A stretch of DNA of 64,000 nt from Myxococcales bacterium (lineage in GTDB: Bacteria > Myxococcota > Kuafuiibacteriia > Kuafuiibacteriales > Kuafuiibacteriaceae): positions 84,072-148,071 of the forward strand of contig JAHQVK010000050.1 in assembly GCA_019634385.1 (NCBI GenBank), in the 5' to 3' direction. The position numbers were made by a program, and so were the translations under genes. This document shows, piece by piece, positions 14,257 to 59,797 of the stretch; the first letter of the stretch is position 1; the number at the start of each line of letters is the position of its first letter. Under the pieces are notes generated by a model, which was not told where the DNA came from, ran no database searches, and was given only the letters and a program-made list of their open reading frames with translations.

Positions 14257-14372
14257 GTAAAGCAGATATCCTTTGGGTTGAACCCAAGTTCCTGCTTCTA
14301 CTCCGGGCTATGCCCCGCTGCGCGACCACTTGGTGATTCTTACTGAATCAATTCAAGGGGGCTTTGCTATAT
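14257..14372 (+). repeat. Family-1 hairpin element, copy R1
   Basis: gtaaagcagatatcctttgggttgaacccaagttcctgcttctactccgggctatgccccgctgcgcgaccacttggtgattcttactgaatcaattcaagggggctttgctatat; matches the other copies nearly end to end. Confidence 0.9.
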
Positions 14373-26717: not shown

Positions 26718-26833
26718 TATACTGCAGAAATCACTTGGGTTGAACCCAAGTTCCTGCTGCTACGCCGGGCTATGCCCCGCTGCGCGACCACTTGGTGATT
26801 CTTACAGAATCGCTTCAAGTGGTCTTTGCTGTA
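26718..26833 (+). repeat. Family-1 hairpin element, copy R2
   Basis: tatactgcagaaatcacttgggttgaacccaagttcctgctgctacgccgggctatgccccgctgcgcgaccacttggtgattcttacagaatcgcttcaagtggtctttgctgta. Confidence 0.92.
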
Positions 26834-38104: not shown

Positions 38105-38480
38105 GGGGCCGACCTGGTTTCGACGGGGGTTGTGCACTTTAGGACGCGTGTCCGGCAACCGTGCTCGCCGGTCAAACGGTACGGAAACTTCAAGTGCCAA
38201 CGACGAGCCTTCGCTCGCTATGGCTGCCTAGTCTAGCTCACATAGAGTTCAACTAGGCCGTGTGTATTGGTGACCCTGCCTCTGGTCCCACTGCAGGCGA
38301 AAACGAAGGGGGCTAGCGCTTGATCATTGCTCGGCGGATCAGGGGCGAATAAAAAGTTGAGCTCGGTCATTAAGGGTGTGTCCGCGAGCCGTTATTGATT
38401 CAAATAGATTCGTGAGACTACACACGTAGGGTCCTCTGGGAATCTTCTTTCGGACGTGGGTTCGATTCCCACCGGCTCCA
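38105..38480 (+). ncRNA. ssrA: Transfer-messenger RNA (tmRNA), tag peptide ANDEPSLAMAA
   Basis: 5' GGGGCCGACCTGGTTTCGACGGG and 3' GGGTTCGATTCCCACCGGCTCCA; acceptor pairing GGGGCCG/CGGCTCC (one G-T). The tag ORF GCC AAC GAC GAG CCT TCG CTC GCT ATG GCT GCC TAG at 38196-38231 encodes ANDEPSLAMAA*. Confidence 0.96.
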
Positions 38481-38648
38481 TCTCAAATCTACCGTCATCT
38501 CGCACGCCTGGCGACGGGCGTGCCGATGACTGTGTCAGAAACCCGCTGCTGGACAAGCTGTCACAGGCACGGGCCCTCATCAAAGCGGGCCTGACCGAGC
38601 GAGCAACGGCGGTGCTGGAGGATTTGATTCGCAGCATAGGTGGGAGCC

Positions 38649-39684: not shown

Positions 39685-39756
39685 TACAGCAAAGACCGAG
39701 GCAAGGACTTAGGTTCAACCCAAGGGATTTCTGCTATATACTGATTTGATCATCGA
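39685..39756 (-). repeat. Internally deleted family-1 element, copy R3a
   Basis: tacagcaaagacc...gacttaggttcaacccaagggatttctgctata keeps both ends and hairpin 1 but lacks the middle. Confidence 0.75.
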
Positions 39757-39764
39757 CTTAAGGA

Positions 39765-39879
39765 TATATAGCAAAGACCACTTGAGTTGATTCTCTAAGA
39801 ATCAACCAGGGGTCGCGCAGCGGGTATAACCCCGCGGAGAAGCTGGAACTTGGGTTCAACCCAAGGGATTTCTGCTGTG
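39765..39879 (-). repeat. Family-1 hairpin element, copy R3b
   Basis: tatatagcaaagaccacttgagttgattctctaagaatcaaccaggggtcgcgcagcgggtataaccccgcggagaagctggaacttgggttcaacccaagggatttctgctgtg (reverse orientation). Confidence 0.92.
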
Positions 39880-40716: not shown

Positions 40717-40827
40717 TACAGCAGAAACTACTTGGGTTGAACCAAATTCCTGCTTCTACGCCGGGCTATACTCCGCTGCGCGCCCCCTAGGTAATTCTTA
40801 CTGAATCACCTAGGGGGCTTTGCTATA
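40717..40827 (+). repeat. Family-1 hairpin element, copy R4
   Basis: tacagcagaaactacttgggttgaaccaaattcctgcttctacgccgggctatactccgctgcgcgccccctaggtaattcttactgaatcacctagggggctttgctata. Confidence 0.92.
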
Positions 40828-45736: not shown

Positions 45737-45850
45737 TACAGCAAAGACCACTTGATTTGATTCTCTAAGAATCAACAAGTGATCGCGCAGAGGGGCATTG
45801 CCAAGCAGAGAAGCTGGAACTTGGGTTCTACCCAAGGGATTTCTGCTGTA
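45737..45850 (-). repeat. Family-1 hairpin element, copy R5
   Basis: tacagcaaagaccacttgatttgattctctaagaatcaacaagtgatcgcgcagaggggcattgccaagcagagaagctggaacttgggttctacccaagggatttctgctgta. Confidence 0.92.
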
Positions 45851-46947: not shown

Positions 46948-47059
46948 TACAGCAGAAATCACTTGGGTTGAAGCCAAGTTCCTGCTTCTACGCCGGGCTA
47001 TACCCCGCTGCACGACCACTGGTTGATTCTTACAGAATCAACCAGTGGTCGTTGCTGCA
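46948..47059 (+). repeat. Family-1 hairpin element, copy R6
   Basis: tacagcagaaatcacttgggttgaagccaagttcctgcttctacgccgggctataccccgctgcacgaccactggttgattcttacagaatcaaccagtggtcgttgctgc. Confidence 0.92.
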
Positions 47060-50175: not shown

Positions 50176-50312
50176 GGCGTGGCTTTAAGCTCCAGGGGCG
50201 TGGCTTTAAGCTCCAGGGGCGTGGCTTTACACTCCGGACCTCGTTCTGACTTGTTTCCACATTTGTGAGGGTTCGGTGGTTTCGCCCTTTCGGGCCCTCG
50301 GTCCAGTACATC
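50173..50312 (+). repeat. Rearranged/partial family-2 element with tandem 21 bp units
   Basis: GGCGTGGCTTTAAGCTCCAGG x2 (50176-50217) plus GGCGTGGCTTTACACTCCGG, then cctcgttctgacttgtttccacatttgtgagggttcggtgg...cctttcgggccctcggtccagtacatcccg, similar to 45512-45640. Confidence 0.75.
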
Positions 50313-50314
50313 CC

Positions 50315-50351
50315 GATTCTTACAGAATCCATTCAAGCGGTCTTTGCTATA
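50315..50351 (+). repeat. Truncated family-1 element, copy R7 (3' hairpin only)
   Basis: gattcttacagaatccattcaagcggtctttgctata, fused directly to the family-2 fragment. Confidence 0.8.
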
Positions 50352-51738: not shown

Positions 51739-51851
51739 TACAGCAGAAATCACTTGGGTTGAACCCAAGTTCCTGCTTCTACGCCGGGCTATGCCCCGCT
51801 GCGCGACCACTTTTTGATGCTTACAGAAGCAATTCAAGAGGTCTTTGCTGT
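51739..51851 (+). repeat. Family-1 hairpin element, copy R8
   Basis: tacagcagaaatcacttgggttgaacccaagttcctgcttctacgccgggctatgccccgctgcgcgaccactttttgatgcttacagaagcaattcaagaggtctttgctgt. Confidence 0.92.
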
Positions 51852-52809: not shown

Positions 52810-52924
52810 TACAGCAGAAATCACTTGGGTTGAACCCAAGTTCCTACTTCTACGCCGGGCTATGCCCCCGCTGAGCGACCACTTGGTGATTCTTACAGAA
52901 TCAATTCAAGTGGTCGCTGCTGTA
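52810..52924 (+). repeat. Family-1 hairpin element, copy R9
   Basis: tacagcagaaatcacttgggttgaacccaagttcctacttctacgccgggctatgcccccgctgagcgaccacttggtgattcttacagaatcaattcaagtggtcgctgctgta. Confidence 0.92.
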
Positions 52925-59684: not shown

Positions 59685-59797
59685 TACAGCAGAAATCACT
59701 TGGGTTGACCCAAGTTCCGGCTTCTACGCCGGGCTATGCCCCGCTGCGCGACCACTTGTTGATTCTTATAGAATCAATTCAAGTGGTCTCTGCTATA
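59685..59797 (+). repeat. Family-1 hairpin element, copy R10
   Basis: tacagcagaaatcacttgggttgacccaagttccggcttctacgccgggctatgccccgctgcgcgaccacttgttgattcttatagaatcaattcaagtggtctctgctata; its end overlaps the pyrC stop codon. Confidence 0.92.

What the first reader, a model, noticed from the sequence alone, without database searches (positions are those of the whole stretch)
40778..40822. Stem-preserving variation in hairpin H3 of the repeat family
The H3 stem sequence differs strongly between copies but stays paired: R4 CCCCCTAGGTAATTC-TTACT-GAATCACCTAGGGGG, R6 CGACCACTGGTTGATTC-TTACA-GAATCAACCAGTGGTCG, and consensus CCACTTGGTGATTC-TTACA-GAATCAATTCAAGTGG. Both arms changed together while the TTACW loop stayed conserved. 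That implies selection, or a copying or recombination mechanism acting on the hairpin rather than on primary sequence.
Basis: seen in the sequence. Interest (0 to 1): 0.62.

Follow-up and report, generated by a model that had tools for sequence, protein, structure and literature searches.

The report
DNA hairpins copying their own arms
A short mobile-looking repeat with several hundred copies in one bacterial genome sometimes has one side of a DNA hairpin rewritten as an exact mirror copy of the other side, or the hairpin flipped, in what looks like a single step; so its paired changes record a copying error during DNA synthesis, not selection to keep the hairpin.

Summary
R4 and R6 are two copies of a ~114-bp TA-ended terminal-inverted-repeat element with three internal hairpins. 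It has an estimated 700-900 copies in this 5.4-Mb genome and no match in 145 others of its phylum. I aligned 196 copies from ~1.1 Mb. Most (157, class A) keep an asymmetric H3: 16-nt left arm, 18-nt right arm with a TT bulge. In class A the arms vary independently (mismatch 2.10 own vs 2.17 shuffled; pair 71-101 odds ratio 0.8), so selection on pairing is not supported. About 38 copies (class P, including R4 and R6) lost the bulge, and their right arm matches their own left arm (1.64 vs 2.53 shuffled, 0/5000; pair 71-101 odds ratio 105). Other copies show the reverse direction, copying that runs past the stem, inverted loops in all three hairpins, and one wholly inverted H3. These are known footprints of template switching between inverted-repeat arms, followed by neutral decay. 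The mechanism is known; the element family is not in Rfam and appears new. Its value is as a several-hundred-copy, apparently weakly constrained record of single-step compensatory change.

The parts
40717..40827 (+). element copy 'R4' (class P, e8): TA-ended terminal inverted repeat, H1, H2, H3
   Evidence: nhmmer and alignment
40782..40818 (+). H3 of R4: left arm 40782-40797, loop TTACT 40798-40802, right arm 40803-40818; right arm 16 nt (TT bulge absent), 1 mismatch
46948..47059 (+). element copy 'R6' (class P, e7)
47013..47051 (+). H3 of R6: perfect 17-bp arms; pairing extends one base (C-G) past the usual stem base into the 3' flank, as copied sequence would
14258..14370 (+). element copy, class A, between convergent genes (mfd-like TRCF and a PEGA-domain protein)
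26720..26833 (+). element copy, class A
39768..39878 (-). element copy, class A; left arm CTGGTTG (the R6 variant) with an uncompensated right arm: the state expected before copying
45737..45850 (-). element copy, class A
51739..51851 (+). element copy, class A
52810..52924 (+). element copy, class A; carries the quoted 'consensus' H3
59685..59796 (+). element copy, class A
50314..50350 (+). partial element (right end of H3 and 3' terminal repeat only)
39697..39738 (-). partial element (left end only)

Best explanation
H3 belongs to a high-copy, TA-ended, non-autonomous (MITE-like) intergenic element. When the element is copied as single-stranded DNA the imperfect inverted repeat H3 folds, the polymerase switches template and reads the other arm of the same hairpin, then switches back. 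An intrastrand switch rewrites one arm as the reverse complement of the other (mostly left to right, removing the TT bulge: class P; sometimes right to left). An interstrand switch inverts the loop or the whole hairpin. The copied tract can run past the stem. Afterwards the copy decays by ordinary one-sided mutations. Shown here: own-arm copying against shuffled controls, overshoot past the stem, loop and hairpin inversions, scattered placement of class P on the element tree, and no coupling in class A. Inferred: that the event happens during DNA replication by polymerase template switching, that each event is a single step, and that the element moves by a TA-targeting transposase.
For: Own-arm coupling only in class P: mean mismatch 1.64 vs 2.53 +- 0.13 (0/5000), 12 perfect vs 1.6 expected (11 without the inverted copy e39); class A 2.10 vs 2.17 +- 0.05, p = 0.08. 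Pair 71-101: odds ratio 105, p = 7e-6 in P; 0.81, p = 0.69 in A. At pair 76-94 the right base is almost always A in class A, and C in 21 of 39 P copies. At least 9 different left-arm haplotypes are copied. Mosaic test: 16 copies have 3 or more differences explained by their own left arm vs 3.5 when left arms are shuffled; 4 or more: 4 vs 0.5. Right to left: e123, e98, e75, e122, e204; only e123's gain clearly exceeds the shuffled control. Overshoot: e174 (L131:9601, -) copies ~15 nt into the terminal repeat (GTAGTCACGCAGTA instead of GTGGTCTTTGCTGTA); e123 (L118:17900, +) copies 21 nt including the CTTT outside the stem; H1 of e68 copies 10 nt. Loop inversions: H3 TGTAA x2, TATAA, AGTAA, TATGA; these are 5 of the 7 copies whose loop lies 3 or more changes from TTACA, against 2.5% of such strings. 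H2 CATAG x6 shares one marker, so probably one event that was then amplified; H1 TTCTA. A strict genome-wide pattern finds 5 loop-inverted class A H3 (two of them adjacent) vs 157 normal. Whole H3 inverted in e39 (L041:17649, +). Class P is scattered: 32 changes on a tree built without H3.
Against: No parent-child pair of the same copy is available, so single-step origin is inferred from footprints. Class P also contains mismatched arms (8 copies with T76 opposite C94; e240/e241 and others), so some P copies may descend from one corrected copy or have exchanged arms with other copies. P copies are marginally closer to each other outside H3 than random (p = 0.09), so independent events are fewer than 38. 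Class A holds a small excess of paired two-sided changes (13). Left-to-right events outnumber right-to-left; orientation relative to the replication fork was not tested.
Confidence: 0.82

Rival explanations
1. Selection on an RNA or ssDNA hairpin: one-sided mutations are followed by compensating ones because the stem is functional.
For: R4 and R6 look like textbook covariation, and a mixed alignment over-weighted with class P scores above shuffles (cells with changes on both sides 37 vs 19.5).
Against: In class A (80% of copies) arms are uncoupled and one-sided changes dominate 197 to 13. H1, H2 and terminal-repeat stems show no covariation over background. In one search nearly all two-sided cells come from pairs 72-105 and 79-97, the two positions fixed by the class P event. 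Selection for pairing does not predict loop inversion, nor copying into the terminal repeat, which damages that repeat.
Confidence: 0.06
2. Ectopic gene conversion or recombination between copies: class P arms are shuffled among copies rather than made within a hairpin.
For: Shared right-arm haplotype CACCAAGGGGTC on several left arms, including mismatched ones; tandem neighbours share variants (e240/e241; C126 pair).
Against: Own left arm matches better than other copies' left arms. Conversion between same-orientation copies cannot create reverse complements, inverted loops, or overshoot that copies the copy's own H2 base into its terminal repeat.
Confidence: 0.08
3. Subfamily structure only: one ancestral perfect-hairpin element amplified, and its copies drifted.
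For: Part of class P shares TTACT and CACCAAG; the H2-inverted copies share C32.
Against: At least 9 different left arms each matched by their own right arm; 32 label changes on the tree; nearest neighbours of most P copies are class A.
Confidence: 0.04

Closest known systems
Template-switch mutation / quasipalindrome correction between inverted-repeat arms (first suggested by Ripley 1982; E. coli lacZ QP5/QP6 reporters, PMC7202029; yeast lineage study, PMC8604942)
   Same: Arm homogenisation removing a small indel between arms, and spacer inversion; both are described as outcomes of template switching (PMC8604942).
   Different: Here it is read from ~200 paralogous copies of one repeat in one genome rather than from reporters or strain trees; some tracts overshoot the stem.
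Template switching as a source of compensatory mutations in RNA stems (Monttinen and Loytynoja 2022, PMC8794818)
   Same: Multi-base compensatory changes and loop inversions explained by one event.
   Different: That work used RNA genes under selection, where compensatory change with loop inversion was 'extremely rare'. This element shows no sign of selection on the stem, and such combinations survive (e112, e123).
Bacterial MITEs such as ERIC and Correia elements (review PMC10969869)
   Same: Short, non-coding, intergenic, terminal inverted repeats, foldable, hundreds of copies (ERIC: 711 in Photorhabdus).
   Different: No sequence match in Rfam or in 145 phylum genomes; no transposase with the same ends was found.

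Membership tests
Template-switch (quasipalindrome) mutation | one arm replaced by the reverse complement of the other, several differences at once | tested here: met
Template-switch (quasipalindrome) mutation | inversion of the spacer or of the whole hairpin | tested here: met
Template-switch (quasipalindrome) mutation | copied tract bounded by switch points, not by the stem | tested here: met
   e174 and e123 overshoot
Template-switch (quasipalindrome) mutation | arises in one generation and depends on replication | not testable with these tools
   needs strain series or a reporter
Selected structured RNA | compensatory changes across the family's stems | tested here: not met
Known RNA family (Rfam 15) | match above the gathering score | tested here: not met
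   only tmRNA found in the window
MITE | short element with terminal inverted repeats, many dispersed intergenic copies | tested here: met
   terminal repeat TACAGCA..TGCTGTA; 179 of 184 copies outside ORFs of 150 aa or more, although 76% of the sequence is in such ORFs
MITE | target-site duplication | tested here: inconclusive
   TA at both ends and tandem copies sharing one TA; no duplication beyond TA; no empty sites available
MITE | a transposase source with matching ends | tested here: inconclusive
   one intact IS630/DDE_3 gene (C191) whose likely ends (GTGTAGTGCGA..) differ; no other candidate examined
REP/REPIN | associated Y1 (RAYT) transposase | tested here: not met
   no PF01797 in the genome

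The most novel reading that the evidence does not exclude
Arm copying and hairpin flipping happen mainly during the element's own movement through a single-stranded intermediate, so each jump can rewrite its hairpins; this would explain the many events and the left-to-right bias irrespective of genome strand.
Probability: 0.1. Interest if true: 0.65.

Novelty: new member of a known kind. Interest (0 to 1): 0.42.

Why it matters
Covariation of stem bases is widely taken as proof of a functional RNA. Here strong apparent covariation in a few copies comes from a DNA copying error, while the family as a whole shows no selection on pairing. A repeat with several hundred copies and no sign of constraint on its stems gives a spectrum of such events (direction, tract length, overshoot, loop inversion) that is hard to get from genes under selection, and a warning case for covariation tests.

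Tried and rejected
Rfam search: no family. REP/RAYT origin: no Y1 transposase. Relatives: none in 28 relatives by DNA, none in 145 phylum genomes by covariance model. IS630-like genes as the source: ends differ. Longer target-site duplications: none. Loss of nucleases as the reason for many events (that such nucleases suppress these mutations is my own background knowledge): SbcD and XseA are both present. Right-to-left arm counts and H1/H2 arm counts, taken in bulk, do not exceed the shuffled control; only single copies (e123, e68) stand out. The H2 inversion counted as six events: rejected, all share C32 apart from e123.

Full report
What is there. The finding lies in one copy (40717-40827) of a repeat of about 114 bp. 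Consensus: TACAGCAGAAATCACTTGGGTTGAACCCAAGTTCCTGCTTCTACGCCGGGCTATGCCCCGCTGCGCGACCCCTTGTTGATTCTTACAGAATCAATTCAAGTGGTCTTTGCTGTA. Ends TACAGCA/TGCTGTA are inverted; inside are hairpins H1, H2 and H3. As single-stranded DNA the typical sequence folds far better than shuffles (z = -6.8). The window holds nine full copies. First-look counts of 731-897 candidates and 184 full copies in 1.09 Mb of stretches put the genome total at roughly 700-900; the second batch of stretches came from contigs with hits, so the upper value may be high. No match was found in 28 relatives or in 145 other genomes of the phylum with a covariance model, and there is no Rfam match. Copies are intergenic: 179 of 184 lie outside ORFs of 150 aa or more although such ORFs fill 76% of the sequence. 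TA ends, and tandem copies that share one TA, fit insertion at TA; no longer duplication exists.

Two classes. I aligned 196 copies. In 157 (class A) H3 has a 16-nt left arm and an 18-nt right arm, so the stem carries a TT bulge. In 39 the two bulge bases are missing (class P; one of these, e39, is really an inverted class A hairpin whose extra left-arm bases fall in dropped insertion columns, so 38). R4 and R6 are class P. In class P the right arm matches the copy's own left arm: 1.64 mismatches against 2.53 +- 0.13 when right arms are dealt to other P copies (0 of 5000), with 12 perfect pairs (11 without e39) against 1.6 expected. In class A the figures are 2.10 and 2.17 +- 0.05, p = 0.08. 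The cleanest comparison is stem pair 71-101, which is variable in both classes: odds ratio 105 (p = 7e-6) in P, 0.81 (p = 0.69) in A.

Against selection. If pairing were selected, class A would show it. Instead, at the 14 non-biallelic stem positions class A has 103 left-only and 94 right-only changes against 13 paired two-sided ones. H1, H2 and terminal-repeat stems do not rise above background column pairs; only H3 does. The pair-count tool on an alignment enriched in class P gives raised two-sided cells, but almost all sit in pairs 72-105 and 79-97, the two biallelic positions that the class P event couples. A standard covariation test on a mixed sample would therefore be misled.

For arm copying. 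At least nine different left arms appear in P copies with their exact or nearly exact complement on the right. A mosaic test, in which the right side may be the copy's own reverse-complemented left arm up to a breakpoint and the usual sequence after it, explains three or more differences in 16 copies against 3.5 with shuffled left arms. In e174 the copied tract runs through the stem base into the terminal repeat (GTAGTCACGCAGTA where other copies have GTGGTCTTTGCTGTA), matching that copy's own TGCGTGACTAC. In e123 the left side carries AAAGATCCCTTGAATTGATTC, the reverse complement of its right arm plus the CTTT beyond the stem. In H1 of e68 ten bases including a private variant are copied. Copying past the stem has no use for pairing. 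Bulk counts for right-to-left and for H1/H2 are not above control, so those directions rest on single copies.

Inversions. Five H3 loops in the alignment are exact reverse complements of observed forward loops, and they make up 5 of the 7 loops that lie three or more changes from TTACA; 2.5% of such strings would qualify by chance. A strict whole-genome pattern finds 5 loop-inverted class A H3 (two adjacent, probably one event) beside 157 normal ones. H2 has the inverted loop CATAG in six copies, five of which share the marker C32, so mainly one event followed by amplification, and H1 has one. e39 has the whole H3 inverted; e112 combines an inverted loop with near-perfect arms.

Independence. 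On a tree of the columns outside H3 the class label changes 32 times, and nearest neighbours of most P copies are class A, although P copies are slightly closer to each other than random (p = 0.09). The tree is weak (short, near-star), and some P haplotypes (TTACT with CACCAAG) are probably a lineage. I would not claim more than about ten to fifteen independent left-to-right events.

Reading. These are the footprints described for template switching between inverted-repeat arms: arm homogenisation and spacer inversion (PMC8604942), and removal of a small indel between arms, as in the E. coli QP5/QP6 reporters (PMC7202029). Monttinen and Loytynoja proposed the same process for RNA stems and found compensatory change with loop inversion extremely rare in genes under selection (PMC8794818). 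That the events occur in replication is inferred. SbcD and XseA genes are present, so no missing nuclease explains the number of events.

Limits. One metagenome-assembled genome, no same-locus comparison, sampled stretches partly chosen by earlier hits, and an alignment in which two-base gaps define the class. Class P copies with T76 opposite C94 (8) remain unexplained; later change of the left arm or exchange with another copy are possible. The source of mobility was not found.

Noticed in passing
L180, L181; flanks of several copies (e.g. L036:18074, L037:7288, L067:2316): A second abundant repeat beginning AGGGCGTGTCTT(CA)AAACTCCG often sits directly next to copies of this element.
   Followed up: no
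L039:9755(-), L044:7450(-), L047:10135(-), L067:1816(-), L179 ~450-580: A diverged subfamily with the same ends and H1 but a different, longer third hairpin (~120 bp).
   Followed up: partly
L183/L184 (G000:C126:2400-2600): A full copy with inverted H3 loop is followed in tandem by a short derivative lacking H1-H2 that carries the same inverted loop.
   Followed up: partly
P-class copies e139, e227, e229, e240, e241 and others: Bulge-less right arms with C at column 94 opposite T at column 76: mismatched class P stems not explained by simple self-copying.
   Followed up: partly
window 50176-50229: A 21-bp tandem repeat (GGCGTGGCTTTAAGCTCCAGG, 2.6 copies) just upstream of a partial element.
   Followed up: no
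window 38105-38483: tmRNA gene (RF00023, 146 bits).
   Followed up: no
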